Part shown: positions 1,863 through 18,117 of the stretch, piece by piece
Layout of the letters: each line of letters opens with the position of its first letter
Numbering within the stretch: position 1 is the stretch's first letter
The notes under the pieces: generated by a model
What the model saw: the letters and a program-made list of their open reading frames with translations, nothing else
What the model was told of the DNA's origin: nothing
The model's database searches: none
Assembly (NCBI RefSeq): GCF_034424215.1
Contig: NZ_CP139960.1
Location: forward strand, 744,001 to 808,000
DNA length: 64,000 bases
Direction: 5' to 3'
From: Niabella yanshanensis
Lineage (GTDB): Bacteria > Bacteroidota > Bacteroidia > Chitinophagales > Chitinophagaceae
Made by a program: the position numbers and the translations under genes

Positions 1863-1893
1863 GATCCACAATCGGCTATACCAATTGTGGATC
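1863..1893. terminator. hairpin between convergent endonuclease and methyltransferase genes
   Basis: A 10-bp perfect inverted repeat (1863-1872 with 1884-1893) straddles the junction of the two convergent genes and overlaps the last codons of the methyltransferase. There is no strong T-tract. It probably acts as a bidirectional stop or transcript-end stabiliser. Confidence 0.5.
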
Positions 1894-3522
1894 AGGTAAT
1901 GCTATATGAACTACGCGTTCCTGCAAAACGGAATTAAATATGGTGCCAATGAGAATGCCAACGAACATATCTAAATGATTATCGAGGATACGTTTATTAT
2001 CCATTTTACCCTTGTCGTTCTTAAGCTCTCTTTCAATAAATGAAGCTATCAAATCGGTGTCCTTAAGTTCACTTTCAAGCAATGTTCTAAACTCATTGGC
2101 GTACCGGGATAGTTCATCGGTCAAAAATATGGGACCCATAAGATCTCTATTCACATTGCTCCAGTTCAGTTGAACCTCATTTTCATTTACACCTTGTATA
2201 AACGTCTGAAAACGGGTTAAAGATGCAGGCAGACCTTCTACTGCTAACTCTTCTATCAATTCATACGCTCGTTCAAACAATTCCAGATCTAATTGTTTAG
2301 CCTTAATGGCCTTTGAAGTACCATAGAAAAAGTTGACACGCCAGCTGGTTGTCCTTGTTTCTCTGTTATGATAATTCTTAAGTTCAAATCGAACACCGCT
2401 ACCAAATCGAAGGCCAGGTATGGCCAAACAGAATGATCTGCTCCATGGGTAGTGTGCTCCTGCGTTCTCCGGCACTGTTGTTATTGCTTGTTCGGTACCT
2501 AAAACAAGTCGTTCTCTTACTTGTTCCGAGTTTGTGAGCAATACTTCGCCAATTGGTGTTTCCTGCATAGCCTGGGCTATATAAAAAGTAAGCGCTGGCG
2601 GTATTGCATTTCCGATCATTTTTATTTTGCCGGCATAGGTATTACTGAAGTATTGATAGTTTATAGGGAACGATTGCAGACATCCTCTTTCACGTATTGT
2701 TAAGCGTCTGATATTTTGTTGGGCATCCTCAATGATAATACTCTCACGTGAAACCCGGGTACATAAAGCCGTTACTGTTCTTGACGGCCTATCCTGACGA
2801 TCAGGAAAACTCATTCTGTTATATACAGGATGATAAGTCTTTGCATCCCGATTGATCCGTTGTTCTTCGGCTGTTAAGTTCGCTTCTAGCAGATGATCGG
2901 TCATACGCTCTTCCTCCAAAGTGAAACCATACACAGGATCTGTATAAGGAATAGTTGACAAACTTCTCAATACATCACCTAAAGTAACTCTAGGTGTCCT
3001 ATTTTTATAGGCATCCAATAAGTGAAATGGCAAACGGCCTGCGATCATTCTTTTCCTATCTTGAGGTACACCAAAGTCAGACGAATTGTAAACCTTAATA
3101 TCTCCAAAAAGATGCGCAAACTGGTGTAATGATCCTTCAGGAGCAAGTTCTTTTTCCAGAATTCCGGCAACTCTTGGTACATTTTCCATAGCCCAATAAA
3201 TCGGCTGCATGTGCTCGACCACTTCCAGGAATTTACGTATGTCCACTAACCCATCGTTTATATCTCCTTTGCCCCCTCTATTAGCTAAAGAGAATTGCGT
3301 GCAAGGCGGGCTTCCGACCACATAATTGACAAGTTCCGGATCAGGTAACATTGCCAACTCAAGGGTACGTATATTTACCTCTTGGTGTGCTGAGTTGAAG
3401 TTCTTATTGTGCGTGTTATTGGCATCTTTCCACCATTCGTACGACGAAAGCACCTCAATGCCAGCCATTTTAAGACCCAATGTCCATCCCCCAATACCGC
3501 TGTACAGATCTATAGCTGCCAT
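1876..3522 (-). CDS. DNA (cytosine-5) methyltransferase with long C-terminal extension
   Basis: C5-cytosine methyltransferase motifs are present in order: motif I (DLYSGIGGWTLGL, residues 5-17), motif IV with the catalytic cysteine (GSPPC, C74), motif VI (ENV, 113-115), motif VIII (QDRKR, 154-158), motif IX (RRLTIRE, 272-278) and motif X (GNAIPP, 304-309). It would methylate cytosines in the site cut by the neighbouring endonuclease(s). The catalytic core ends near residue 325; about 220 further residues form an unrecognised C-terminal region that is longer than usual for the family. It follows an XRE controller gene with an 8-bp gap and a vsr gene, all leftward, so it sits in one operon with the second endonuclease. 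Confidence 0.95.
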   Translation of the reverse strand: MAAIDLYSGIGGWTLGLKMAGIEVLSSYEWWKDANNTHNKNFNSAHQEVNIRTLELAMLPDPELVNYVVGSPPCTQFSLANRGGKGDINDGLVDIRKFLEVVEHMQPIYWAMENVPRVAGILEKELAPEGSLHQFAHLFGDIKVYNSSDFGVPQDRKRMIAGRLPFHLLDAYKNRTPRVTLGDVLRSLSTIPYTDPVYGFTLEEERMTDHLLEANLTAEEQRINRDAKTYHPVYNRMSFPDRQDRPSRTVTALCTRVSRESIIIEDAQQNIRRLTIRERGCLQSFPINYQYFSNTYAGKIKMIGNAIPPALTFYIAQAMQETPIGEVLLTNSEQVRERLVLGTEQAITTVPENAGAHYPWSRSFCLAIPGLRFGSGVRFELKNYHNRETRTTSWRVNFFYGTSKAIKAKQLDLELFERAYELIEELAVEGLPASLTRFQTFIQGVNENEVQLNWSNVNRDLMGPIFLTDELSRYANEFRTLLESELKDTDLIASFIERELKNDKGKMDNKRILDNHLDMFVGILIGTIFNSVLQERVVHIALPDPQLV

Positions 3523-3530
3523 ACTCTTAA

Positions 3531-3869
3531 CTATTTATTTGATTTTATTTTTCGTAGATCCTTCTTATTCGTTCTTACATGATCGATCTTTTCTTTCGAT
3601 ACAGTCAAGATATACTCAAAGTCATCCTCTTCAACTAACATGGAGGAGATCTCATCGCTTAGGTAAATTCGTTTCAACTCATCTGTTGATATACCGAACA
3701 GCCGGGACACAGTCTGTATTATATCAAACACCCTTTTTTTAGGAAATTTATCCTCATTTTCAATTTTGCTTAAAACAGAAACATCCATATCTAGCTCGTG
3801 CGCAAGTTTACGTTGCGGCCAACCTTCTTTTTCTCTTAATGCTTTGATATAGGACCCAAGGCTTTTCAT
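3531..3869 (-). CDS. XRE-family controller (C-protein-like) of the R-M system
   Basis: A helix-turn-helix of the XRE/Cro type covers roughly residues 6-62 of a 112-aa protein (start of the domain SYIKALREKEGW, then QRKLAHELDMDVSVLSKIEN). A longer start at 3938 is possible, but it would translate an AT-rich segment with repeat boxes that looks like a promoter/operator and would overlap the upstream vsr gene, so the ATG at 3869 is chosen. Small XRE proteins in type II systems (C proteins) time endonuclease against methyltransferase expression. Its position between vsr and the methyltransferase fits that role. Confidence 0.8.
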   Translation of the reverse strand: MKSLGSYIKALREKEGWPQRKLAHELDMDVSVLSKIENEDKFPKKRVFDIIQTVSRLFGISTDELKRIYLSDEISSMLVEEDDFEYILTVSKEKIDHVRTNKKDLRKIKSNK

Positions 3870-3876
3870 AAAACAA

Positions 3877-3917
3877 ATATCTTGACTTTTTTTTATTTGA
3901 CAAAAAATATCAAGTAT
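3877..3917 (-). promoter_or_regulatory. possible operator/promoter upstream of the XRE controller
   Basis: This short AT-rich gap holds an inverted pair CTTGA (3881-3885) and TCAAG (3910-3914), each within an ATAT-containing box, plus an extra TTGAC at 3897-3901. This is the kind of repeat array bound by C proteins. No experimental consensus can be applied here. Confidence 0.4.
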
Positions 3918-3924
3918 TTTTTTA

Positions 3925-4368
3925 TTAATACGTTTCAAGTAGGGCTATTATTTTTTCAACTTCGATTTCTGGCTGCTTTTTTATTTCACATTCCCATAGA
4001 ACAAGCACTTTCCAATTAGCTTGCTCCAACTCTTCTCTTTTTTTGTTATCACGCGCTACATTCTTATGGAACTTTTCGGCCCAAAATTCAGTGTTGGATC
4101 TTGGCATAGGCAAATTGCAATGAGGGCACCGATGCCAATAACATCCATTGACGAAAACGGCAACTTTCTTTTTCAAAAATACTATGTCAGGTTTACCTGG
4201 TATTGTTGGATGAAGCCTATAGCCCTTGTAGCCTTTCTGCCAAAGTAGTTTTCTGACAATGAGTTCTGGCTTAGTATTTTTTGCCTTTATTGAGCTCATT
4301 ATATGGGATGCTCCTTCGGAAGAAGGATGGGGAGATCGCTTATCTCGTATGTATTTCTTTTCACTCAT
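3925..4368 (-). CDS. vsr: Vsr-type very-short-patch mismatch endonuclease
   Basis: This 147-aa protein has the Vsr layout: an N-terminal MSSIKAKNTKPE segment, GKPDIVF with the catalytic aspartate (D61, equal to D51 of E. coli Vsr), NGCYWHRCP with H79 (E. coli H69), then an NTEFWxxKFxxNxxRD segment and a closing VLVLWECEI strand. Vsr nicks T:G mismatches made when 5-methylcytosine deaminates, and is usually coded beside m5C methyltransferases, as here. The residue equivalent to E. coli H64 is Asn (N74), a variation I also associate with other Vsr-like proteins. Its start overlaps the stop of the endonuclease gene by 1 bp. Confidence 0.92.
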   Translation of the reverse strand: MSEKKYIRDKRSPHPSSEGASHIMSSIKAKNTKPELIVRKLLWQKGYKGYRLHPTIPGKPDIVFLKKKVAVFVNGCYWHRCPHCNLPMPRSNTEFWAEKFHKNVARDNKKREELEQANWKVLVLWECEIKKQPEIEVEKIIALLETY

Positions 4369-5114
4369 TATACTGTTAACCGATCACTACCAATCCCTAT
4401 TAAAATAAATGGACAAGGATTACCAACACCTCTATTTAATCTCAACAGCAATTTATCCATATGAGTAGTAGCTGCTCCATATTTAGAATAGTATATGGTA
4501 GACGCTATTTTATCTAATAATGCATCCTTAGGTAAATCAAGATGATTCCCTATATTCTTTTTGGCGGTGTCGGAAAGAGAAATTCTACTGTTTAATTGCG
4601 GTAATGTGAATGGATATATACCCTCCAAAAACCTACGGATTACATTATACAACTCTTTTTGAAGACTGGCTCCTCTTGTAATTATTATGCCTATGCTTAG
4701 CTCACCTATCTGATGTAACTTCCTAAAATTCTCCAGATCACGGTCATAGAATGGGTCTTTATTATTCCATTCTATTTCCAATCCAATATTTCCTTGTTGA
4801 AACGACTTATAATGATCTACCTCATGACTTTCCGATGTAAGTACCCTGCCTCTTACATGATGTTCACTTTCGATTTTGGTCTTGGTCCATGCATTTTGTA
4901 CCAATAAACCTCCTAAGCTTTGAGTGATAGAACTGAGGCCACCGCCACCTTGGATTATTTGATCTTCTCTTATGCTGAAATGATTCAGTATAGCCGTTAA
5001 TTCGGTTGTAGCATCATTAAAGTGATCTTTTATTATTGAGTCTGCAAATCTCGTAAAATATACTTCATATCCGGGTATGTTCAAAACCCGCTCATTTTTA
5101 TAATAATTGGACAT
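4368..5114 (-). CDS. second BglII/BstYI-family type II restriction endonuclease
   Basis: This 248-aa protein has a central block typical of the EWNNKDP subgroup of the BglII/BstYI endonuclease family: SHEVDHYK, then LEIEWNNKDPFYDRDLENF, then GIIITRG. The acidic and lysine residues of this block form the likely metal site. A later GAATTHMDKLLLRL segment and a CPFILIGIG strand also fit. It cuts DNA at a short, unknown site. It is the first gene of the leftward operon endonuclease-vsr-controller-methyltransferase and is probably the cognate enzyme of that methyltransferase. The protein at 1118-1849 is a distant relative rather than a copy: the two share family hallmarks but little sequence. Confidence 0.85.
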   Translation of the reverse strand: MSNYYKNERVLNIPGYEVYFTRFADSIIKDHFNDATTELTAILNHFSIREDQIIQGGGGLSSITQSLGGLLVQNAWTKTKIESEHHVRGRVLTSESHEVDHYKSFQQGNIGLEIEWNNKDPFYDRDLENFRKLHQIGELSIGIIITRGASLQKELYNVIRRFLEGIYPFTLPQLNSRISLSDTAKKNIGNHLDLPKDALLDKIASTIYYSKYGAATTHMDKLLLRLNRGVGNPCPFILIGIGSDRLTV

Positions 5115-6112: not shown

Positions 6113-6382
6113 TTACACAATCTCGATTTGTTCCCTTTGAAACCGCTCTTGCAAGGCTTCATATTTTTGTTCTTTAGCAATGGTGATGGTAAGCCTGCCT
6201 TTTTCGCAGGCTATTTCTACCACATGGCCGGGCTTAAAACCGCTATCCTGTAGCCATTTTCCGGCCAGCCGCAATGCCGGGAATGATGTGGTTGTTCTGC
6301 TGTTGACGCCCCTGAATGCATAGCGGCATACCGTCATGCGGCGGATGGGTTTGGTAATGCGGTGTGTTTTTACTGTTTGCAT
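6113..6382 (-). CDS. SymE-like type I toxin-family protein
   Basis: This 89-aa protein carries a SymE/AbrB-like beta segment (FPALRLAGKWLQDSGFKPG, then VEIACEKGRLTITI) in its second half, after a basic N-terminus with a short RMTVCRY strand. Members of the family include E. coli SymE, an SOS-controlled toxin repressed by an antisense RNA. No antisense RNA can be shown here. It is divergent from the XRE gene at 6526 across a 143-bp gap, so the XRE protein may control it. The basis is motif resemblance; toxicity is not implied. Confidence 0.7.
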   Translation of the reverse strand: MQTVKTHRITKPIRRMTVCRYAFRGVNSRTTTSFPALRLAGKWLQDSGFKPGHVVEIACEKGRLTITIAKEQKYEALQERFQREQIEIV

Positions 6383-6525
6383 AGCTTAGCTTTTTGTTGG
6401 TACAAAGCAACAGCTGCCGGGTTTTGTGTCCTACAAAAATTGATTGTGTGTTACACCTAAAAAGCTTGTATTTTATGTATCTTTAGGCTTGCAAAATCTA
6501 ATTTGAAAAAACTAAATTTGCTCCT

Positions 6526-6933
6526 ATGACAACACATACTGCTATGCCGAACCACAAAGTACACGAAGGCCGCAACATTAAACGTTTTCGCGAAATGCTG
6601 GGTATAAAACAAGATGCCCTGGCTTTTGACCTTAATATGAGCCAGCAGGCCGTATCCTTGCTGGAGCAGAAAGAAACGATCGATACTCCCCTACTTCAAA
6701 AAATATCTACCCTATTGAAAATACCGGTGGAGGCAATCCAGAATTTTGATGAGGAGCAGGCGGTGAATATTATTGCTAATACGTTTAACGAGAAGTCTTT
6801 TGAGAATGCCTTTGCAAACAATTGTACTTTCAATTTTAATCCACTTGATAAAATGGTGGAATTGTATGAACGTATGCTACAACAGCAAAGGGAGATGATT
6901 GATGAGTTAAAGAAACTAGTGGAAAGAAAATAA
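6526..6933 (+). CDS. XRE-family transcriptional regulator
   Basis: This 135-aa protein has a helix-turn-helix at roughly residues 15-70 (IKRFREMLGIKQDALAF, then MSQQAVSLLEQKE), followed by an asparagine-rich linker and a C-terminal coiled-coil-like helix (MVELYERMLQQQREMIDELKKLVER) that could dimerise. Proteins with this arrangement are common as stand-alone regulators in Bacteroidota. It is transcribed away from the SymE-like gene and ends 11 bp before the structured repeat at 6945-7069. Confidence 0.85.
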   Translation: MTTHTAMPNHKVHEGRNIKRFREMLGIKQDALAFDLNMSQQAVSLLEQKETIDTPLLQKISTLLKIPVEAIQNFDEEQAVNIIANTFNEKSFENAFANNCTFNFNPLDKMVELYERMLQQQREMIDELKKLVERK

Positions 6934-7123: not shown

Positions 7124-7948
7124 ATGCCAGGTAACGCTAGATTATTCCAAGAATCAATAACCCGTGAACTTACTGTTGTAAAAGACAGGGTGAGAAATTT
7201 AATAGGTGATGCTCATTGGGGGGAAGAAGGCCGGTTTAAAGAAGCCGTGTTGAAAAATGTGTTACGGCAATTTCTACCTAAAAACTTATCTGTAGGCACA
7301 GGCTTCATTTTAAAAGCTACTGGTGAGAATGATTATGACAATGTGTTATCATCCCAATTAGATATTATTGTTTATGATAATACCCTGCCGGTACTTTTTT
7401 CAGAAGGTGATTTTGTGATTACAACTTTGAAAAATGTAAAAGCAATTATCGAAGTAAAATCCAGGCTTACACCAACCATGCTTAGGCATGCTATAGAGCA
7501 GTTTGAGCATTCAATAAGCGATTTTGAAGGTCAAATTAACCGGCCCTTTTTTAGTGTAGCAGGACGTCAAAGGCCAATACCAAGTAAGACCAAAATATTT
7601 ACTGGTATTTTTGCATTCGAGTTTGATGGAAATATAGATTCCCATTCAATAGATACTAGCTTAATTGATTCAAGAAGGTTAGTTAACCATATCTCTTTAG
7701 GTGAAGATTATTTTATTAAACATTGGAAGCAAACTGATGCAGGACATCTTGTCAGGAGAGTGGACTGCGCGGCCGATTTTTATAATGTATATAACCTTTA
7801 CAATCTTTCTTTTTCCTATTTCATATCCAATCTTATAGATATTACTTCCGGCGGGCTGAACGACAGGTACTGGTTTTCTTTTCCTATAGAAGGCACAAAA
7901 GAAATGCAAAGGAATAGAACCATTTGTCTAAACCCTCAAAGGCGATGA
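7124..7948 (+). CDS. DUF6602-like PD-(D/E)xK nuclease candidate
   Basis: The 274-aa product (ATG at 7124 preferred over the TTG three codons upstream) has the DUF6602 pattern: [20 protein letters not shown], then VGTGFIL, then SQLDIIVYD and AIIEVKS. D80 and E110-x-K112 form a PD-(D/E)xK nuclease motif, so it probably cuts nucleic acid with Mg2+. The C-terminal half is not recognised. It overlaps the following HNH gene at an ATGA junction, so the two are translationally coupled. It begins 54 bp after the left repeat element. It could be the restriction component for the methyltransferase operon it faces. Confidence 0.75.
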
Positions 7949-8739
7949 ATTGTATTTTTTGTAAAGGTCCTTCTGATGATTCGGTTAGTGTAGAACACAT
8001 TATTCCCAAATCGTTAGGCAATACTCAATTTATTTTAGAGAAAGGATGGGTTTGCGATAAATGCAATAATTATTTCGCTATAAAAATCGAACAGCCATTG
8101 CTTCAAATGCCTTTCTTTATGCAGTATAGGCATGACTTAAATGTAAAGAGTAAAAAGGGTAAAATTCCAAGTAAAAAAGGCTTCCTTCTCGACGAAAACA
8201 TATCGGAAGCTGTCTTACATAAAGATAAAAACAAACAAGAAAGACTTGAAATAGAGCCAAGCGTAATAAATGAAATATTAACAAGCGGTATAGAAGAAAT
8301 CCCTCTTATTACCGTAACCTATGCAGTGCCGGTAGCAAATGAATTGGTTTCAAAATTATTAGCCAAAATGGGGATTGAATCTATAGCGCATACTGCGATG
8401 ACAAACGGTTATGACGAATTTTATTATAACCAAGAAAGTTTGGACAATATTAAACGATATGTCAGGCGCGGAAAAAGAAATGAATTCTGGCCTTATGTAA
8501 CCCGTAGTATCCAAATATCAACAGGCGGTGAGTTAAAAGATATAGTATCGGCATTAAAGGGACTTAACGGGAGTCTTATAATAGTTACCTCCGATCAGCA
8601 ATTGCTTTTTCAGTTTCTTTTTGCAAATACTGAATTTACCATAGATCTACTCAATCCAGGCACAGAATTTATTTTACATTTTTTTTCTGTAAATGAAAAT
8701 AGAAGCTTCATTGTTGAAAATGCGTTGGATAAGTTGTAG
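7945..8739 (+). CDS. HNH endonuclease-domain protein
   Basis: The start is taken as the ATG at 7945, which overlaps the upstream stop in an ATGA junction and sits directly before a zinc-binding C-x2-C (C3, C6). An [10 protein letters not shown] segment (E17, H18, N26) and a second C-x2-C-N (C37, C40) complete an HNH/treble-clef fold with the metal-binding cysteines. The remaining 220 residues are helical and unrecognised and may bind DNA or a partner. It probably acts together with the DUF6602-like protein. It converges with the second vsr gene with only 1 bp between the two stop codons. Confidence 0.82.
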
Positions 8740-8740
8740 T

Positions 8741-9154
8741 CTAATAATCTAAATGTGCAATTATTGTTTTAAGCACCATCTCTATATTTTTTTCGATATC
8801 ACACTCCCAACAGACTAACACCTTCCAACCTAGCTGCTGTAATGCTTCCTGGTGTTTTTGATCCCTGCTAATATTCTTTAATAGTTTTTCTTTCCAGAAT
8901 GTCGAATTGGTATTTGGTATTCTGCCTTCGCGGCAATCGGCATGATAATGCCAAAAACAACCATGTACAAAGATGGCTGTTTTGTATTTGGGTAATACAA
9001 TATCTGGTTTTCCAGGCAGTTTTTTATTATGAATGCGGTAGCGGTAGCCTAATGCAAAAAGAGCTTTGCGGAGCATAATTTCAGGTTTAGTATCCTTCGA
9101 CCTGATCTTGCTCATTACTTCACTCCGCTTCTCTTTCGACCATATATCTGCCAT
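8741..9154 (-). CDS. vsr: second Vsr-type mismatch endonuclease
   Basis: A 137-aa Vsr protein with all three E. coli catalytic positions at the same numbers: D51 (GKPDIVL), H64 and H69 (FVHGCFWHYHADC). The NTNSTFWKEKLLKNISRD segment and the closing VLVCWECDI strand are also present. It would repair T:G mismatches from deamination at sites methylated by the m5C methyltransferase two genes upstream. It is the last gene of the leftward operon; its ATG overlaps the stop of the HNH gene by 1 bp. It is clearly different in sequence from the Vsr at 3925-4368. Confidence 0.95.
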   Translation of the reverse strand: MADIWSKEKRSEVMSKIRSKDTKPEIMLRKALFALGYRYRIHNKKLPGKPDIVLPKYKTAIFVHGCFWHYHADCREGRIPNTNSTFWKEKLLKNISRDQKHQEALQQLGWKVLVCWECDIEKNIEMVLKTIIAHLDY

Positions 9155-9711
9155 TATTGTTTCCTTGCAAATGTTTTATCCAATTCCTTATAAAGTAACA
9201 AAGCATTTTGAAACTCTGATTTTATTTTTTCATACAGATGATTGGTTATAATCCGTATAGAATCTTTTTCCTCCATAGTCAATTTAGGATAAGCAAACTC
9301 TCCCTCATTTATGTGTTTTCTAATTTTGGTCCACCTGTCAAAAAACTTTTCCTTTTGATTATTTCTTTCGCAAATATGTGACAGGTGCTCTTCCCAGGTA
9401 GTATATCCACTATCCACCTTCTTCGTTCTTGAATTACATTTTGAGCATACTGGTACTATGTTTCCCGGATGGTGCAAACCATACTCGTTTCTGTTAAACA
9501 TAATCAAGTGCTCCATTTGCAACTTAGTTTCCTTATCGCCACAATATGCACATTCATTTTGAAATATTTCATCTCTTATTTTCTCCCAATCCCGCTTCCC
9601 TTTTCCATTTCCAGTATTAAAACCGCTACCCCAGTAATATTCTCCAAGACTTGTAAGAAAAGCTCTAATTGCAGTATTGGCAATATCAGCAGGTGTATTA
9701 TATAATGCCAT
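9154..9711 (-). CDS. HNH endonuclease in methyltransferase operon
   Basis: This 185-aa protein contains a complete HNH motif: C54-x2-C57, MEH (E67, H68), HHPGNIVPVC with N84, and C89-x2-C92-N. This is the zinc-stabilised form found in McrA-like and many type II enzymes. The N-terminal 45 residues and the C-terminal helical tail are unrecognised. It overlaps the methyltransferase gene by 14 bp and the vsr gene by 1 bp, so it is likely the operon's cognate cleaving subunit. Whether it cuts unmodified or modified DNA cannot be told. Confidence 0.85.
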   Translation of the reverse strand: MALYNTPADIANTAIRAFLTSLGEYYWGSGFNTGNGKGKRDWEKIRDEIFQNECAYCGDKETKLQMEHLIMFNRNEYGLHHPGNIVPVCSKCNSRTKKVDSGYTTWEEHLSHICERNNQKEKFFDRWTKIRKHINEGEFAYPKLTMEEKDSIRIITNHLYEKIKSEFQNALLLYKELDKTFARKQ

Positions 9712-10867
9712 TATTTACTTTATAATAGTTAATCAAGGTCCTTCGTATTTCTTTAGCTATCAGCTCAGCTTTTGCAGTTGGCACACCATTACTGATTAAT
9801 TTAAATTTATGCGTTAATGGAATGTCAGCCGGTAAAACGTACTCGTCTGGCACTGTCTGTAGCCGCAGCCCTTCTCTTACAGTCAAGCGCCTAGGCTTAG
9901 TGGGATGAAGGTGAACTTCGTTATTACCATAAGCAACCGTGGGGCTATAACGGAATCTATGTAACCGTTTGAACGACTTCCGGTTTGTATCCCCCTCCTC
10001 AATTTGGGTAAAGCGGTCAGATTTAGGAATAAAATGCTCACATTGATTGGGATGATTGTCTGTTAAATCACCTATAACATTATCAATAAAAAGCCGTTTG
10101 TTTATATTCTGCGTAAATTCCTTTACGTCATTTCCAAATCTCCATTTCTTTGGCCAGTTCAGCCCTTTAGGATTTTCAAAAAGTGGTTTAGGCCATCTGA
10201 AAATCAGTTTATCTGAATGATTAAATTTTAAGATTGTATTGTCAAATTCTAATACATAGCCAGCTTTTTCAAGCGTGCTAATTATGGCTTTTTTAAATGC
10301 TACTAAAGCAATTCTTGGTCTGTCTTGTGGATGACCGTACTCAAGCACATTCAACAAATCATGCCAAACAAAATATCCTTCTTGCTCAATACTTTTAACA
10401 AAAGCATCAAATGATACCCGGTGTTTTTTTGTTTTATACAAGCCTTCAACATTTTCAAAAAATAAAAAATCAGGTTTTATTTTAGAAATTATGGTAAAAT
10501 AGCTATGGATCAAACGCCCTCTCTCCCCTTCTATACCTCCGTTTTTTCCTCCTGCAGAGTAGTCTTGACAAGGTGGTCCTCCAATAATTCCTGATACCTG
10601 TTTATAGCTTTTTTGAAGCCTGGCTTGCTCTAGCGGGCAGGAGGCATCTGTGGGCTTGGTTATGTCATTATGGGTTACCAGATTTTTTCTTACATAGTAG
10701 TTGTTAGAATTCTGAAAGTAACTACGAAGGCCTTCGTTGTATGCTTTAATAAAGAACGGCTGAATTTCCACCGCCTCCATCACCTGGAAGCCATTATTAA
10801 TGAATCCGATGTCTAAAAAGCCACCACCGGAAAAAAGTGATAATATGTTGAATGTTTTATTGTTCAT
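9698..10867 (-). CDS. DNA (cytosine-5) methyltransferase
   Basis: A 389-aa C5 methyltransferase. Motif I is LSLFSGGGFLDIGF (residues 9-22), the catalytic site is GGPPCQDYS (C100), motif VI is ENV (138-140), motif VIII is HPQDRPR, motif IX is RRLTVREGLRLQ, and motif X is a variant ISNGVP. Length is normal for the family, so unlike the enzyme at 1876-3522 it has no large extension. It is the third gene of an overlapped five-gene operon that also codes for a double-GHKL ATPase and a receiver-like protein. It presumably protects the host site recognised by the operon's nuclease. Confidence 0.95.
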   Translation of the reverse strand: MNNKTFNILSLFSGGGFLDIGFINNGFQVMEAVEIQPFFIKAYNEGLRSYFQNSNNYYVRKNLVTHNDITKPTDASCPLEQARLQKSYKQVSGIIGGPPCQDYSAGGKNGGIEGERGRLIHSYFTIISKIKPDFLFFENVEGLYKTKKHRVSFDAFVKSIEQEGYFVWHDLLNVLEYGHPQDRPRIALVAFKKAIISTLEKAGYVLEFDNTILKFNHSDKLIFRWPKPLFENPKGLNWPKKWRFGNDVKEFTQNINKRLFIDNVIGDLTDNHPNQCEHFIPKSDRFTQIEEGDTNRKSFKRLHRFRYSPTVAYGNNEVHLHPTKPRRLTVREGLRLQTVPDEYVLPADIPLTHKFKLISNGVPTAKAELIAKEIRRTLINYYKVNNGII

Positions 10868-13133
10868 GTTCTGTCCTTTCTAGTACTCCGTTTACCAATT
10901 GCAATTTTTGATTCTTATCAAAAACTATAACACCTGTCTTTAGTTCTTGAATAGTTAGTTTACGCTTGGCATGTCCATCCTCTATGAAACTAATTAGGTT
11001 TTCTGACCCTAAAATTTGAAAATTTTCATTATTTTCTGGTTTTTGTTTATTATAAAGGTCTTTATAACTAAATGCTGCTTTTGCTTTATAATCGTCAATA
11101 TTCAAGTGATACTTATATTGTAATGTATATGATGCAGCACCATTTTCAGTTAACTCATATTGAAGTTTGCTTTCAATTGTTAATTTGTCGGATATGGCGT
11201 ACGAAAATAGTTTTTCATATTGCGGGAGCTTAATTTTTAAATCATAAAGTTTTATGTACTTACCCTGTCTAGAAGTGTACAACCCAAAGTCTTTTATTTC
11301 TTGTCGGGAATCTGGATCTTCACATAGTTCGAAAACTAAAGTTATTACTTCGACTTCCTCTTCAATATTACCAATTAAGTTAAGATCAATTCTACCTTTA
11401 TTATTCAAATAATTATTGTACAGAGAGTCAAAATAACGCCCTTTCAGCCTGCAGACTCTTCTTATTTGATGATCAAAAATTTGTCCGTCTTCTTGAAAAA
11501 TGAACTTGGGGAACTTTATGGGGCCAGAAATATCATGTGACTGAATAAATTCTGCTACACCTTTTCCTGCAACTTTTGAGTATTGTGCTTTAAGCTCATC
11601 ATAATACAAATCTTTTCCAGCAGGCAATAATAATGATACATCATCATCTAGATCGGTTCCAATATCAATTTTACATTTCCCCAAATCATTAAACATACAT
11701 AAATCCAAAACTTGCAAATCAGCAAAAAATATATTGGGCGTCGCAATATCTATATTTATAGTTTCGTATTCATTTTCCCCTATTTTTAAAAAATAGTCAA
11801 TATATATTTTTTTCTTGCCATTCTCTACTACAATTTCAAACTTATGTTCTTGTTTATTATGTTTACCAAAATTGATTTGAAAAAATTCACCAAGTTTTGC
11901 TTTCCGCTTATTAGTTTTTCCTCTCAATAATAAGTCACACAATTGACCAATTAGTATATAATACTGTCCGTTTGCTTCCCAGATGTCTCCGGGGGCTATT
12001 GGCAAATGTTTTTTATTGATACTGTAATCAAAAAGTTCGTATGTATTAAGCCCTTTTAATTCTTTACCGACTTCAGGTAAACCTGGATGATCCACTAAAT
12101 AATCTCCATTAAAAAATGAAGTTAATCCCGCAATGAACTTAAAGTCATTTAACTCTCTAGAGTCAAATTCATTACGAATAGATAGTTCATTCCAGTATTT
12201 AATAGCGTCATAAGCTGAAATGCCTTCTTCGTGTGATTTGTCGATTATATACTTAATGTTCTTTTGGTTTTTAAGTACGATTTTAAGAGTATCCTCTGCA
12301 CTTTTAACAGTTTTAACGCGTAATGAATTAAATACTTCTGCATATGCAGATTGCGCTAGAGCTAAAGCAATATCATCAATACTATTCGCGCCATTTTTTG
12401 AAATTTCCTGGACAAAATAGTCTTCATAATTGATTAAAGAAACAGGGCTAGCAGTGCTAGTATATAAACAGCAAATATGATTGAACCTTTCATCATTTTT
12501 ATGTTCCTTAATTAAATCATTTATTAACTCTTTACCTTCTTGCATCCCACCTCCCAAGCTCTTGTCAATAATTGATAAGCAAAAATGGCTGTGAGTTTGT
12601 GAGATTGCAGCTTCAACTTCAGATTTGAATTCGTCCCATTCCGCATGAGTTGGCCGCTCTTTTCTAATTATTATTTTACATTCCTTTATTGATTGGATGG
12701 TTTCTAGTATTTCTTTATATTTGGGAACAGCTTCATGAATAAAAATGCCATTTTTTAAGAAGATGGATTTCAACTTATTGTCTTCATCAGCTTTTATAGC
12801 ATCGGTAAGAAATCCTAACGGAGCCTTAATAATTTCTTCATGCCCTATTTTCTCTAAATATTTATCAAGATAGTCTGTTCCTATTTTTTCAAAGGTTTCA
12901 TTGTCATGATTTTGAATATTATTCCACTTATCATTGAAATCTCTTAATTGTGAAGATAGTTCTGTATATTCTTTAAATTCCAGCTCGCCCAATATTTGAG
13001 AGCGTTTTTCTTCTGAAATTGTATAAATGCCACCTAAGATTAATTTAGGATCTTCTATATAAGAAAATTCATTCTCAATAATTAGAATTGTAAAGGCTTT
13101 TAGCGTTTTTATAAGCTCTTGCAGTTTATTCAT
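10857..13133 (-). CDS. large unrecognised protein with degenerate receiver-like N-terminus
   Basis: This 758-aa protein matches no family I can name. Its first 250 residues can be read as a response-regulator receiver fold with a long insertion: strand 1 FTILIIENE (14-22), then about 155 extra residues, strand 3 HFCLSIIDKS with D190 followed by GxGMQEGKELIN, strand 4 ICCLYTST (T225 or T227), and strand 5 DYFVQEISKN with K246. The Asp/Thr/Lys order is the receiver order, but the acidic pair of strand 1 is poor. The remaining 500 residues have alternating strands and helices, with YILIGQLCDLLLRG and RRVCRLKGRYFDSLYNNYL as possible interaction regions. It overlaps the ATPase gene by 8 bp and the methyltransferase gene by 11 bp. 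I infer it is the ATPase's partner. Confidence 0.6.
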   Translation of the reverse strand: MNKLQELIKTLKAFTILIIENEFSYIEDPKLILGGIYTISEEKRSQILGELEFKEYTELSSQLRDFNDKWNNIQNHDNETFEKIGTDYLDKYLEKIGHEEIIKAPLGFLTDAIKADEDNKLKSIFLKNGIFIHEAVPKYKEILETIQSIKECKIIIRKERPTHAEWDEFKSEVEAAISQTHSHFCLSIIDKSLGGGMQEGKELINDLIKEHKNDERFNHICCLYTSTASPVSLINYEDYFVQEISKNGANSIDDIALALAQSAYAEVFNSLRVKTVKSAEDTLKIVLKNQKNIKYIIDKSHEEGISAYDAIKYWNELSIRNEFDSRELNDFKFIAGLTSFFNGDYLVDHPGLPEVGKELKGLNTYELFDYSINKKHLPIAPGDIWEANGQYYILIGQLCDLLLRGKTNKRKAKLGEFFQINFGKHNKQEHKFEIVVENGKKKIYIDYFLKIGENEYETINIDIATPNIFFADLQVLDLCMFNDLGKCKIDIGTDLDDDVSLLLPAGKDLYYDELKAQYSKVAGKGVAEFIQSHDISGPIKFPKFIFQEDGQIFDHQIRRVCRLKGRYFDSLYNNYLNNKGRIDLNLIGNIEEEVEVITLVFELCEDPDSRQEIKDFGLYTSRQGKYIKLYDLKIKLPQYEKLFSYAISDKLTIESKLQYELTENGAASYTLQYKYHLNIDDYKAKAAFSYKDLYNKQKPENNENFQILGSENLISFIEDGHAKRKLTIQELKTGVIVFDKNQKLQLVNGVLERTEHEQ

Positions 13134-15777
13134 TATCCTCAGCAGGTTGGTTTAAGCGTATTTCAAAAATATAACGGTTGCCATATTCATTCTTCATTGG
13201 TAATAATTCAATATCCCCCCCAAAAGATTTCAAGAACTGCCTCACAATATACAATCCCATACCCCGGCCATCTTCCTTTCCGGAAACCAATTCATTAAAT
13301 AAAATATGCTGATACTTATCTAGCACACCTGTGCCCGTATCATGGAACTGCAAAGTGTTGGAAGAAGTGGATTTTATCACAATAGAATCATGTTCGGTTC
13401 TTTGATACTTCACATTAGCTTTTGATTGTTTTTGGCGTTGCCTGATCCAATATATGGAGTTATCTATCAGGTTATAGAAAACGTGTAGTAAAGCACCTTT
13501 AGGAACTTCCCAGGTATTATTGACCGATGAAATATCAACTTCAACTTTATGCCTTTTTAACCTGAATTTGAACCGCTCAACAATAATAGCTAATTCATCC
13601 TTTACATCAGTGGCAACCAAAGCTCTATTGCCTTCACTTTTAATAAATGTTTTATCCAGGAAAGAATAAAATTTATCCAGGTCACCCATTTTTTTGAACA
13701 AATGTTCAAACTTATTCTTAACAGGTTTTAAATGCGTTTTATTAATATCATACAGCTCATTTTCCAGGAAATAATTTTCAATAAAACGGAAGTGTTCATC
13801 ATATTTCTTTTCCTCCTCTTCAGAGCTGCTTAATAAGGAATGCAGTTCATGGGTAATTATTTCTGTAACCAATCCATTGGCCATTAGTTTGTAGTTGTTA
13901 TAAGCCTCTGTTTTGATTCTTACTTGCTCTTGCTTGGCAACTTCCAGCAATTGATTGGCGCTTCTCAGCGATCTTGTAGTGTCATCAATATTTTGTTCAA
14001 AATTTAGTGCAACCGGCTCCAATTTTTCAAATACCCTTTTTACAGAAGCAATTTTTTCTTCCGAATCAAGATCAATATTATCTTTTATGGCTGTAATAGC
14101 TTGTTGTATTGCCACAAGGTTCTGCTTAGCAGATTCAAATATTACTTTTGCCTTATCTACTTCCTCCTGGATTTGTTCATCTGTATTTTCAGGTATCCAG
14201 CCAATCTCCAGACTTAAGAAGCGTTTGGTTAGCTCCACAGCCAATTTTGAGAAATTGGGAGAAAAAATCTCCAGGATTTCATTCAAGACCACTCTTAAAG
14301 ACTCCGCATAGATGTTTTGCGTCAAATGTTCTCTTGAGCTAGTCTCATAAATATATTCCTGTTTCTTATCATTAATTTTTATAAAACCAATTACATTGCC
14401 TAGTTCAAATCTGTAAAACTGTTGCCCAGAGGTTCTTTTTTGTTGTAACTCTAACCAGTCGTTCTCTTTATTACCTATAGTAGCTATTCTAAAAGAGTTC
14501 CGGTATAGCTTTATGCCGTTATTAGCTTCAAGAAAAGGTCTTATATCATAATTAATCCTGGTTTTAGCATCTATATATTTATTTTCTACCGCCGATTTCC
14601 TCGCCATGCTCATCAGCGTATTATCTCTTTTGAAAGAGTAGATTTTGCCATCCAGCGGTGCAAGTTTTAATATTGCTTCAATAAAGCCATTTGTATTAAT
14701 AGATTTATCTTTTTTCTTCCACCTTCTTAACGCTTCAGATAAAAGAAAACTTTCGGAGAGATTCATTTCATATTCAGCCTGATATTTTTTATATAATTTT
14801 TGATATTCCGATGGAGAGCGTTTCCAATCCTGATATAACACAGTACCCAATTCTCTGTGATGGATTCTTTCTATAAACCAAGGACGGATATCAAGCTTTA
14901 AATCAAATTTTAAATCAACTGGTTTACCTGACTCATCAAAAATAAAATTCGATGTAAATGAGTGAATCGATTCCGCAACACTCAATGCTTGATAATTAAA
15001 GTCAAGTTTAACAGGTTTTTTATCGATTGATATGTCAATATTAATCAAGCTCTTTTTTTCCTCAAATGGAGAGTAGAGAAATCCAAGTGCAGTTTGTAAT
15101 TCGCTTTTAACAACTAACTTCTTACCAAGGCTTTTACCCACATTACCAAACAAGTCTATCGCAAACTCTTCTTTTTCTTCAGTGTATCTGTCGAAATCAA
15201 CTGGAGTGTCTGTATCGCCTATTAGCCATAATCTGGTATAGCCATTTGATTCTGCAGAATCTTCTCGCCATTCAGGTGCATCAAATTGATTATTGTTTAT
15301 AAATTCAGACCACTGTACTTCAATAATATTTATGTTTTTAGTGCCTTCTTCTAAGCTTTCTACTATCAATGTAGGGGCTATGCGTTGTGCAGCCAATCTG
15401 CCAATACCTTTATCCCCTAAGATGAGTTTATCATCGTCAGAATAAGAAGAGTCTTGTTTTTCCTCTTTCTTTAAGGTTGAACCTACTTCAAAAAAGCCTT
15501 TCTGTAATACATCATAAGACATTCCCTTCCCATCATCCTCAATGACAACAATTCCATTTGGGGATTTTTCTTTGAGCCTTGTTAATATAACGGATGGTAT
15601 TTCTACATTACTTCTTTTTTTATCAAAATTGTCAATCGCTGAAAGAAATTGTATATAAACATTTTCTGCTTTTGCGTCATACGAATTCTTTATTAATTCA
15701 GTAATAGCGACTTCATCTGAAGTAATTAACTCATAGCCTAAATGCCGCAGGATTCTAGGGTTGTATGTAAATTTCAT
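13126..15777 (-). CDS. double-GHKL ATPase (MutL/MORC-like plus histidine-kinase-like)
   Basis: This 883-aa protein contains two Bergerat-fold ATP sites. The N-terminal one is MutL/Hsp90/paraMORC-like: N-box ELIKNSYDA (27-35), G1 DDGKGM (81-86), G2 GDKGIGRLAA (121-130). The C-terminal one resembles a sensor histidine kinase: N-box FYNLIDNS (767-774), G1 DTGTG (813-817), G2 DGRGMGL (836-842). An H-box-like HELHSLL begins at H643, after a long coiled-coil-like region (about 540-630). No membrane segment or sensor domain is seen, so it is cytoplasmic. GHKL ATPases of the paraMORC type are known from restriction-modification neighbourhoods. It heads the operon with the receiver-like protein, methyltransferase, HNH nuclease and Vsr. 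Confidence 0.85.
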   Translation of the reverse strand: MKFTYNPRILRHLGYELITSDEVAITELIKNSYDAKAENVYIQFLSAIDNFDKKRSNVEIPSVILTRLKEKSPNGIVVIEDDGKGMSYDVLQKGFFEVGSTLKKEEKQDSSYSDDDKLILGDKGIGRLAAQRIAPTLIVESLEEGTKNINIIEVQWSEFINNNQFDAPEWREDSAESNGYTRLWLIGDTDTPVDFDRYTEEKEEFAIDLFGNVGKSLGKKLVVKSELQTALGFLYSPFEEKKSLINIDISIDKKPVKLDFNYQALSVAESIHSFTSNFIFDESGKPVDLKFDLKLDIRPWFIERIHHRELGTVLYQDWKRSPSEYQKLYKKYQAEYEMNLSESFLLSEALRRWKKKDKSINTNGFIEAILKLAPLDGKIYSFKRDNTLMSMARKSAVENKYIDAKTRINYDIRPFLEANNGIKLYRNSFRIATIGNKENDWLELQQKRTSGQQFYRFELGNVIGFIKINDKKQEYIYETSSREHLTQNIYAESLRVVLNEILEIFSPNFSKLAVELTKRFLSLEIGWIPENTDEQIQEEVDKAKVIFESAKQNLVAIQQAITAIKDNIDLDSEEKIASVKRVFEKLEPVALNFEQNIDDTTRSLRSANQLLEVAKQEQVRIKTEAYNNYKLMANGLVTEIITHELHSLLSSSEEEEKKYDEHFRFIENYFLENELYDINKTHLKPVKNKFEHLFKKMGDLDKFYSFLDKTFIKSEGNRALVATDVKDELAIIVERFKFRLKRHKVEVDISSVNNTWEVPKGALLHVFYNLIDNSIYWIRQRQKQSKANVKYQRTEHDSIVIKSTSSNTLQFHDTGTGVLDKYQHILFNELVSGKEDGRGMGLYIVRQFLKSFGGDIELLPMKNEYGNRYIFEIRLNQPAEDNE

Positions 15778-16287: not shown

Positions 16288-17514
16288 ATGATGCAGCGAT
16301 CCGGCAGTGCAGACTTACCCCTTCATAACGGCCAGGTGCCGCCCTGGCTGGCTGCGCGCATGGCGGCATTGGGCAAGGCGATTGTGGAAGAAATTATCGC
16401 CGGCCAGGGTAAAAGCGCCCTGCTGTCTAAGCTAAGCGACCCCTTCTGGTTCCAGAGCCTGGGCGCGGTGATGGGTATGGACTGGCATTCGTCGGGCATT
16501 ACTACCTCGGTAATGGGGGCTTTAAAAAGCAGCATCAACCCGCTGGCCAGGGAGCTGGGCATCTGCATCTGCGGCGGTAAGGGCCGCCACTCGCGGAACA
16601 CGCCCCAGGATATCCTGCGCTTTGCCGAAACCACCGGCCTGAACGCGCCCGACCTGGTGCGCAGCAGCAAGCTGAGCGCCAAGGTGGATAATACGGCCGT
16701 GCAGGATGGCTTTCAACTGTACCAGCATCATTTCATATTGAGCGACGAGGGCCAGTGGACGGTGATCCAGCAAGGCATGCGCGACAGCAGCGCTACGGCC
16801 CGGCGGTATCATTGGCACTCCCCATCGGTACAATCGTTTACCGAAACGCCGCATACCAGCATTTACGGGGCCAACCAGGGTACGATCCTCAACCTGACCG
16901 ATCAACTGGCGCGGCCTTTAAAAACCGCTATGATGGAAGTGGCTACTGAAAACCCGGACCGGATGCTGCCGGAGATCGCTAAGATGCGGCACCTGGTAAT
17001 GCCTAGCCACCACGATGTAAGGGCAAAGGATGTGGACCTGAAGCGCCTGGGCGCGGTGCTCTGGCTGGCACAGGAAAAGCAAGTGCAGAACTTTGAAGAG
17101 CTGCTGTTGCTGGAAGGCCTGGGCCCGAAAACCTTGCAGTCGCTGGCGCTGGTGAGCGAGGTGATCTACGGGCAGCCCACACAGTTTAAGGATCCGGCGC
17201 GTTTTTCCTTTGCCCATGGCGGCAAGGACGGGCATCCCTTCCCGGTGCCTACGCGGGTGTATGATGAAACGATCGACACTTTACAGCAGGCCATAAACAG
17301 AGCTAAGCTGGGCCGGCAGGATAAAATGCAGGCGATACAATCGCTGTCGAAAATAACAGACCGGCTGTCCGAAGACTTTATACCAGATGGCAGTATTGAC
17401 GAGGTGATCGCTCACGAAAGGGCGGAATCCTGGAAATATAGCGGACGAACGGTTTTTGGTAAAGCGAAGCGGCCGCAGGGACGGCAGTTGGATTTGTTTG
17501 ATGACCAAGGATAG
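16288..17514 (+). CDS. DUF763 domain protein
   Basis: This 408-aa protein is a full-length DUF763 member: the N-terminal MQRSGSADLPLHNGQVPPWLA and the central GGKGRHSRNTPQ and YQHHFILSDEGQWTVIQQGM segments are hallmarks. A helix-hairpin-helix-like LLLLEGLGPKTLQSLALVSEVIYG stretch near residues 274-297 suggests DNA binding. The biochemical function of the family is unknown to me; DNA repair or nuclease-related roles have been suggested by domain content. It is GC-rich compared with the island on its left. Two adjacent ATG codons (16288, 16291) are possible starts. Confidence 0.9.
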   Translation: MMQRSGSADLPLHNGQVPPWLAARMAALGKAIVEEIIAGQGKSALLSKLSDPFWFQSLGAVMGMDWHSSGITTSVMGALKSSINPLARELGICICGGKGRHSRNTPQDILRFAETTGLNAPDLVRSSKLSAKVDNTAVQDGFQLYQHHFILSDEGQWTVIQQGMRDSSATARRYHWHSPSVQSFTETPHTSIYGANQGTILNLTDQLARPLKTAMMEVATENPDRMLPEIAKMRHLVMPSHHDVRAKDVDLKRLGAVLWLAQEKQVQNFEELLLLEGLGPKTLQSLALVSEVIYGQPTQFKDPARFSFAHGGKDGHPFPVPTRVYDETIDTLQQAINRAKLGRQDKMQAIQSLSKITDRLSEDFIPDGSIDEVIAHERAESWKYSGRTVFGKAKRPQGRQLDLFDDQG

Positions 17515-17530
17515 TAAGTGTGTATTTGAA

Positions 17531-17555
17531 AAAGTTACCAAAATTTGGTAACTTT
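17531..17555 (+). promoter_or_regulatory. perfect palindromic operator of the ParDE module
   Basis: AAAGTTACCAAA and its exact complement TTTGGTAACTTT flank a single A, ending 18 bp before the parD start. Type II antitoxins usually bind such a palindrome to repress their own operon, so this is the likely ParD/ParDE operator. Confidence 0.75.
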
Positions 17556-17573
17556 ACGTCAAAAAGAAACGTT

Positions 17574-17825
17574 ATGGGACGCAATACCTCTGTATCATTG
17601 GGCGATTACTTTGAAGATTTCGTAGAGCATAGCATTGCAGCAGGCAGGTATAGCAATGCCAGTGAGGTAATAAGGGCTGGCCTGCGATTGCTGGAAGAGG
17701 AAGAAAATAAAGTGCAGGCGCTTAAAAATGCCATTGAAGAAGGCATTAATAGCGGCGTTGCTAAAAATTTTGATGCTAAAAAACATTTAGCCCAATTAAA
17801 ATTGGCAAAGAGAAAAGATGGCTAA
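17574..17825 (+). CDS. parD: ParD-family antitoxin
   Basis: The ATG at 17574 is chosen because it begins MGRNTSVSLGDYFEDFV, the normal N-terminus of ParD/CopG-type ribbon-helix-helix antitoxins; a longer frame from 17520 would translate the operator. The product is 83 aa: a ribbon-helix-helix (about 1-50, with SNASEVIRAGLRLLEEEE) and a charged C-terminal tail that would wrap the toxin. It binds and inhibits ParE and represses the operon. Its last 8 bp overlap the parE start. Confidence 0.92.
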   Translation: MGRNTSVSLGDYFEDFVEHSIAAGRYSNASEVIRAGLRLLEEEENKVQALKNAIEEGINSGVAKNFDAKKHLAQLKLAKRKDG

Positions 17826-18117
17826 ATATGTATTAACGAATAAAGCAGTTGAAGACCTTACCCAGATTTGGGATTATACTTATGAAGTGTGGTCAGAAAA
17901 CCAGGCAGATAAGTATTATGAGTTAATTATTGCTGCCTTTGAGGAAATTGCTGAAAACCCTGCGTTGGGTAAAAGCTATGCAGCGCTGTCAAAAGAAATA
18001 TTGGGGTTTAAAGTAGGCAAGCATATCATCTTTTACACAATATTGAAACCCGATGAAGTTCAAATTGTAAGAATTCTTCATTCAAGAATGGACTTAAAAA
18101 ACAGACTGAGAGAATAA
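17818..18117 (+). CDS. parE: ParE-family toxin
   Basis: This 99-aa protein of the RelE/ParE fold starts with YVLTNKAVEDLTQIWDYTYEVW and has LGKSYAALSKEILGFKVGKHIIFYTI and a C-terminal VQIVRILHSRMDL segment, as in typical ParE proteins. ParE toxins poison DNA gyrase. The 8-bp overlap with parD gives translational coupling that keeps antitoxin in excess. It is intact, with normal length. The actual target is inferred from the family. Confidence 0.93.
   Translation: MAKYVLTNKAVEDLTQIWDYTYEVWSENQADKYYELIIAAFEEIAENPALGKSYAALSKEILGFKVGKHIIFYTILKPDEVQIVRILHSRMDLKNRLRE

What the first reader, a model, noticed from the sequence alone, without database searches (positions are those of the whole stretch)
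7124..15777. Candidate undescribed defence system: double-GHKL ATPase + receiver-like protein + m5C methyltransferase + HNH + Vsr, facing a DUF6602/HNH pair
Seen in sequence: five leftward genes overlap by 8, 11, 14 and 1 bp, and two rightward genes overlap by 4 bp and meet them with one base between stops. The set has a modification enzyme, three nuclease candidates, a mismatch repair nuclease and an ATPase/receiver-like pair. Established knowledge: GHKL ATPases (paraMORC type) occur in R-M neighbourhoods, and Vsr accompanies m5C methyltransferases. Inference: the ATPase and receiver-like protein control or power cleavage. I know no named system with exactly this set, but could not search.
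Basis: partly seen in the sequence, partly recalled or inferred. Interest (0 to 1): 0.85.

Follow-up and report, generated by a model that had tools for sequence, protein, structure and literature searches.

The report
Two-component-style restriction-modification operon
A bacterial gene cluster joins a DNA-marking enzyme to a kinase and receiver pair that looks like a signalling relay, and relatives of that pair sit beside several chemically different DNA-marking systems, so it may be an alarm-and-attack module against viruses.

Summary
The genes and overlaps are as described. The core is HK883 (two GHKL domains and an H-box) - RR758 (receiver plus a large output region) - C5 methyltransferase, kept in the window and the four close relatives found. 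HNH, Vsr and the facing DUF6602/HNH pair are not conserved with it. The kind is not undescribed: HEF_HK/Response_reg_2 pairs near C5 methyltransferases, HNH and Vsr were published in 2021 (PMC8011034), paraMORCs in 2008. The window proteins miss both Pfam models; profile comparison and an intact phosphorelay link them to that family. New here: a separate branch with another gene order, and related pairs beside C5 methyltransferases, N6/N4 methyltransferases and phosphorothioation (Ssp-like) genes, including an A. baumannii locus that may be the Ssp locus whose nuclease is reported missing. Receiver proteins without the shared 'CD' motif tend to be followed by a separate HNH, MBL or GIY-YIG gene (6 of 9 against 5 of 26), but this depends on how genes are classed (p 0.003 to 0.22). 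Best reading: a modification-linked phosphorelay that switches restriction or killing on, about 45%. No bench test.

The parts
13126..15777 (-). HK883: N-terminal HATPase_c_3 (residues 20-161), conserved middle region (421-520), H-box ITHEL with H643, C-terminal HATPase_c (762-875)
10857..13133 (-). RR758: receiver domain 1-275 with a helical insert (E20, D190, T225, K246), output region 346-590 with GDI...GQLCD, fast-evolving C-terminal domain 591-758
9698..10867 (-). C5 cytosine DNA methyltransferase (PCQ and ENV motifs read by eye)
9154..9711 (-). HNH protein, 185 aa, not found in sister loci; accessory or acquired nuclease
8741..9154 (-). Vsr-type endonuclease, expected (from the family) to repair T:G mismatches at deaminated m5C
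7124..7948 (+). DUF6602 protein with PD-(D/E)xK and NucC-like PADLOC matches; facing neighbour, not core
7945..8739 (+). HNH_5 protein; facing neighbour, not core

Best explanation
The core HK883-RR758-MTase is a restriction-modification unit with a two-component-style switch. The methyltransferase marks host DNA. HK883, a double-GHKL kinase with an N-terminal MORC-like ATPase module, senses a DNA state that signals invasion (unmodified DNA, ends or a structure) and autophosphorylates at H643. The phosphate passes to D190 of RR758, which releases or activates its output region (346-590, with a motif shared across the superfamily) to attack DNA or stop the cell; the fast-evolving end (591-758) tunes recognition. 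Vsr limits mutation at m5C; the HNH is an accessory nuclease. Shown: conserved operon, conserved catalytic residues in both partners, predicted receiver fold, recurrence beside different modification chemistries. Inferred: the signal, phosphotransfer, and the output activity.
For: HK-RR-MTase in 5 of 5 type-W loci, with no nuclease gene common to them. H-box His plus acid in 27 of 27 HKs aligned. E20, D190, T225, K246 invariant in 5 of 5; receiver fold. An RR-like gene follows the HK in 36 of 37 HK loci read (not found in L109; most RRs judged by eye on the acidic strand-end motifs). A modification gene lies within about 4 kb in 29 of 36 and within about 10 kb in three more (L040, L043, L044): C5 in W 5/5 and K 7/7, N6/N4 in T3 4/4, phosphorothioation genes in PT 7/7, other methyltransferases in 9 (tally 144); in L049, L112 and L115 the record says only SAM-dependent methyltransferase. 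RRs without the CD motif are followed by an annotated HNH, MBL or GIY-YIG gene in 6 of 9, RRs with it in 5 of 26, as if output domain and separate effector replace each other. The A. baumannii pair faces DUF4007/ATPase/PAPS-reductase-like genes; a paper notes a missing Ssp nuclease and a nearby two-component system in that species (PMC12421847, passages).
Confidence: 0.45

Rival explanations
1. HK883 and RR758 are a signalling pair that only regulates expression of a neighbouring restriction system (the speculation of PMC8011034); the output region binds DNA or RNA.
For: Two-component logic usually ends in transcription (general knowledge); PMC8011034 proposes control of R-M; a GHKL kinase with a repressor controls immune operons in CapK/CapS (PMC13373217, passages); PT loci with FtsK genes have an independent candidate restriction arm.
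Against: No DNA-binding domain recognised in RR758; no nuclease common to the type-W loci to be regulated; relay and methyltransferase genes overlap in one operon.
Confidence: 0.22
2. The GHKL protein is a paraMORC-type motor that loops or clamps DNA for the HNH nuclease, which is the true restriction enzyme; the receiver domain is a structural adaptor.
For: DNA looping by paraMORCs in R-M operons was proposed in 2008 (PMC2292703, passages); HNH lies in the operon; HNH or HNH_2 genes follow several related pairs.
Against: Window HNH not found in L002-L005 and not similar to the other HNHs compared; the H-box His is kept in 27 of 27 HKs aligned, which an adaptor scheme would not need.
Confidence: 0.18
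3. Adjacent independent defence modules: a methyltransferase with Vsr, a GHKL/REC pair, and a DUF6602/HNH system, joined by island clustering.
For: The window also holds a BglII-type R-M with Vsr at 1876-5114, SymE-like and XRE genes; HNH and DUF6602 are locus-specific.
Against: HK, RR and MTase overlap and co-occur 5 of 5; modification genes lie near 32 of 36 related pairs.
Confidence: 0.1

Closest known systems
HEF_HK (PF19191) / Response_reg_2 (PF19192) two-component-like pairs with R-M systems (PMC8011034, 2021)
   Same: HATPase_c_3 + H-box + HATPase_c kinase next to a receiver protein, with C5 methyltransferase, HNH and Vsr neighbours; HK profile match over most of its length, E 3e-35
   Different: No match to either Pfam model; gene order HK-RR-MTase, against MTase-HK-RR in 7 of 7 PF19192 loci read here; RR 758 aa, against 525-575, with an extra variable C-terminal domain
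paraMORC GHKL ATPases in R-M operons (PMC2292703, 2008)
   Same: N-terminal GHKL module in R-M contexts with Vsr and HNH
   Different: The word receiver does not occur in that paper, and the passages seen mention no H-box or second GHKL domain
Ssp-like phosphorothioation loci with HK-RR pairs (L040, L041, L043-L046, and A. baumannii L054; compare PMC12421847)
   Same: Related HK-RR pair near a DNA-modification module
   Different: Modification is sulfur in the backbone, not m5C; RR 636-714 aa
DefensePredictor predictions (PMC13092281; figure legends and passages only)
   Same: HATPase and REC are among the domain labels of predicted systems not validated
   Different: Whether both belong to one system, and which proteins they are, was not seen; E. 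coli
Detocs (recalled; one search listed one paper that mentions it, not read)
   Same: Defence by a histidine kinase and response regulator relay to an effector, as recalled
   Different: Different proteins and no DNA-modification partner, as recalled

Membership tests
HEF_HK / Response_reg_2 family (PMC8011034) | Match to PF19191 in the kinase | tested here: not met
   No hit at E <= 1; own-genome search at E <= 10 hit only three other places; two K-type HKs tested do hit above cut-off, two PT-type below it
HEF_HK / Response_reg_2 family (PMC8011034) | Match to PF19192 in the receiver protein | tested here: not met
   No hit at E <= 1; own genome 0 matches
HEF_HK / Response_reg_2 family (PMC8011034) | N-terminal HATPase_c_3 and C-terminal HATPase_c in one protein | tested here: met
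HEF_HK / Response_reg_2 family (PMC8011034) | Core His followed by an acidic residue in the DHp-like helix | tested here: met
   H643-E644, in one alignment column with the His of the K-type HKs; His plus E or D in 27 of 27
HEF_HK / Response_reg_2 family (PMC8011034) | Receiver fold with phosphoacceptor Asp, Thr/Ser, Lys | tested here: met
   (predicted model; margin over unrelated folds small)
HEF_HK / Response_reg_2 superfamily (wider) | Homology of RR758 to Response_reg_2 proteins | tested here: inconclusive
   Direct hhalign weak: W-K 4% (CD stretch only), W-PT 0.8%, K-T3 2.2%; chain W-T3 98.8%, T3-PT 93%, PT-K 96%
paraMORC | GHKL plus S5 domain, R-M neighbourhood | tested here: inconclusive
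   GHKL and neighbourhood met; S5 domain not tested by a model
Type II restriction-modification | Methyltransferase with a cognate endonuclease for the same site | tested here: inconclusive
   Methyltransferase met; no conserved endonuclease; sites unknown
Druantia (MTase matches DruM2 at 1.3e-112) | Other Druantia proteins beside DruM | tested here: not met
Detocs | Its named proteins | not tested
   recalled only

The most novel reading that the evidence does not exclude
The window operon belongs to a large, mostly unannotated superfamily of defence systems in bacteria and probably archaea in which a MORC-like sensor kinase and a receiver protein form a modification-agnostic phosphorelay: the same alarm pair is plugged into C5 methylation, N6/N4 methylation or phosphorothioation, and its output is a nuclease or killer domain, carried on the receiver protein or made by the next gene, rather than transcription. 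It would supply the missing effector of Ssp systems such as that of A. baumannii.
Probability: 0.3. Interest if true: 0.85.

Novelty: new variant of a known kind. Interest (0 to 1): 0.6.

Why it matters
If the relay is real, restriction would be gated by His-Asp phosphotransfer triggered by DNA state, a control not shown for any R-M system that I know of (recalled). It would tie R-M, phosphorothioation defence and paraMORC ATPases into one scheme, give a testable candidate for the effector reported missing in a widespread Ssp system, and name two catalytic residues whose substitution tests the idea directly.

Tried and rejected
Output domain as PemK/MazF-like RNase: suggested by eye, tested by hhalign against an alignment of 12 PemK-family sequences, probability below 1 in all five comparisons; rejected.

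C-terminal domain swap by recombination: suggested by identities (win/L003 66 and 51% against win/L002 19 and 15%); trees do not demand it, since one topology is not rejected in any partition (AU 0.069 for the C-terminus, 0.08 for 346-590, 0.42 or more elsewhere). Kept only as fast divergence.

XRE gene at 6526-6933 as cognate controller (61% match beside L003): it has six copies in this genome and matches in 20 of 247 genomes, so it is a general family.

DUF6602 as core: 0 of 4 sister genomes (in which nothing rang anywhere); 21 of 247 Bacteroidota genomes have it, the window's own among them. L035 is the only other locus read here with it adjacent.

Because of that spread I lowered the best explanation from 0.50 to 0.45 and the novel reading from 0.35 to 0.30.

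Literature: PF19191/PF19192 by name is in PMC8011034 and, once, PMC10663231 (listing). For phosphorothioation with such a pair only the PMC12421847 remark was found; the BREX/DUF4007 paper PMC12839542 has no 'receiver', 'MORC' or 'GHKL'. Other searches: 9, 10, 58, 140, 141. The library lacks most subscription papers, so absence there means little.
Full report
WHAT IS THERE. The window lies in a 5.54 Mb single-contig genome, probably Bacteroidota (inferred from the named homologues). Seven ORFs are as described, with the stated overlaps. Leftward: HK883 (15777-13126), RR758 (13133-10857), C5 methyltransferase (10867-9698), HNH (9711-9154), Vsr (9154-8741). Rightward: DUF6602 (7124-7948) and HNH_5 (7945-8739). 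NCBIfam's BbrUII/HgiDII restriction family matches HK883 only weakly (62.6 bits against a cut-off of 550; best stretch 75-163).

THE CORE. A genome-contig scan with HK883 gave five loci; one (L006) is a hybrid kinase with PAS and HisKA domains and was dropped. In the other four (Pedobacter, Chryseobacterium, Mucilaginibacter, a Flavobacteriia MAG) the order HK-RR-MTase is kept: 5 of 5 with the window. What follows differs: HNH and Vsr (window); a 252-aa protein without a recognised domain (L002); nothing on that strand for 2 kb (L003); Vsr and a 647-aa protein with a TDIDG...QLK stretch, read by eye as nuclease-like (L004); nothing on that strand, with a separate MTase-MvaI/BcnI-Vsr set upstream (L005). 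So no nuclease gene is shared. The type is rare: in 294 family genomes only the window's own carries it (two more have partial, T3-type matches); in 395 phylum genomes likewise only its own (one partial T3 match); in 148 of the Chryseobacterium set only L003's own genome.

HK883. Both GHKL domains keep recognisable ATP-site motifs. In an alignment of 27 HKs (W 5, K 7, T3-type L036-L038, eleven plasmid loci, L054) the H-box His followed by E or D is present in 27 of 27. Profile comparison links HK883 over most of its length to K-type HKs (E 3e-35) and to N6/N4-MTase-linked HKs (E 9e-46).

THE FAMILY. PMC8011034 (abstract, Results and Discussion read) describes 644 regions with Response_reg_2-type genes, 91.6% of them linked to GHKL/HEF_HK genes, with C5 methyltransferases, HNH and Vsr, and speculates on control of R-M. 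PMC2292703 (passages) describes paraMORC GHKL proteins in R-M operons with Vsr and HNH. So the kind is known. The window proteins fail both Pfam models, while the two K-type HKs tested pass. Profile links run W-T3 98.8%, T3-PT 93%, PT-K 96%; the direct comparisons W-K (4%), W-PT (0.8%) and K-T3 (2.2%) fail. I therefore call it a probable sister branch, not a member of PF19191/PF19192 as defined.

ONE PAIR, SEVERAL MODIFICATIONS. I read 37 HK loci: W 5, K 7 (the PF19192 hits over the cut-off, 7 of 296 genomes; the further weak hits of that call were not read), T3 4 (L036-L039), PT 7, and 14 other plasmid loci. An RR-like gene follows the HK in 36; in L109 I looked only at the longest ORF of the gap. 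Modification genes: C5 in W and K; in T3 N6/N4 methylase (Pfam above cut-off in L036 and L037, below it in L038, annotated as site-specific DNA-methyltransferase in L039); in PT 7 of 7 a DUF4007 gene with a large gene beside it (called ATP-binding in two) and a PAPS-reductase gene (annotated in six, inferred from place and size in L054), with a cysteine desulfurase in five; the L046 stretch ends before it. In L040, L043 and L044 these genes lie about 9-10 kb from the pair. Nine other loci have methyltransferase genes (L042, L049, L107, L108, L110, L112, L113, L115, L116). None annotated: L048, L111, L114; L047 unclear. So 29 of 36 within about 4 kb and 32 of 36 within about 10 kb. L116 is an archaeal plasmid. 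Plasmid loci were chosen by me from hit lists, not at random; H41 was considered and not fetched, and most listed hits were not read.

WHERE THE EFFECTOR SITS. Of 9 RRs without the CD motif, all are followed on the same strand, within -17 to +22 bp, by another gene; in 6 this is, or in L049 is followed by, an annotated HNH (L042, L107, L113, alike at 30-37%), MBL-fold (L108, L111; in L111 interrupted by an IS) or GIY-YIG (L049) gene. Of 26 with the motif, 5 have a nuclease-like gene behind the RR or the methyltransferase (window, L004, L031, L033, L037). Fisher p is 0.015 so counted, but 0.003 to 0.22 under other classings; it is post hoc and ignores kinship. It is a lead for an output module carried in cis or in trans, not a proof. 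In L054 the pair faces the modification genes; in 30 kb the only other candidate annotated is an 'endonuclease' in a run of transposase genes. PMC12421847 (passages) reports a missing Ssp nuclease and a nearby two-component system in A. baumannii global clone 2; that L054 is the same locus is my inference. Against: five of seven PT loci also carry FtsK-type genes that may be the restriction arm.

MECHANISM AND VERDICT. The best-supported reading is a phosphorelay that couples DNA sensing to restriction or killing, with the methyltransferase protecting self; signal, phosphotransfer and output are inference. HNH, Vsr and DUF6602/HNH are neighbours of varying closeness. DefensePredictor (legend) has HATPase and REC among labels of predictions not validated. 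New variant of a known kind; interest 0.6.

Noticed in passing
1876-5114 (-): A second type II R-M: C5 methyltransferase and BglII-family endonuclease, a Vsr-like gene similar to the window Vsr (49%) and an XRE-like regulator (by eye). Two Vsr-bearing m5C systems lie about 4 kb apart.
   Followed up: partly
6113-6933; L087 7971-8801; also L088-L091: A SymE-like gene (Pfam 8e-12) beside an XRE regulator; a similar arrangement recurs 8 kb upstream (by eye for the SymE-like gene). The XRE family has six copies here, one near a Cas9 gene (Pfam) and one beside a protein starting like SIR2 (by eye; Pfam found nothing): perhaps a regulator of defence loci.
   Followed up: partly
17520-18117 (+): Two small overlapping genes that look like a ParD/ParE toxin-antitoxin pair (by eye, not scanned).
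   Followed up: no
16288-17514 (+): DUF763 protein (Pfam 1.2e-134) upstream of the operon, on the other strand.
   Followed up: no
L038 6570-7592; L037 9087-9572: Next to T3-type HK-RR pairs: a protein matching a TIR effector model (PADLOC 6.9e-8) and a short GmrSD_N protein.
   Followed up: no
L109 3251-6630: C5 methyltransferase followed by a GHKL protein; no receiver gene found behind it in a brief look.
   Followed up: no
L040, L041, L043, L044, L046: Phosphorothioation loci with the HK-RR pair also carry FtsK/SpoIIIE proteins next to large hypothetical proteins, a possible SspFGH-like arm (by analogy, not tested).
   Followed up: partly
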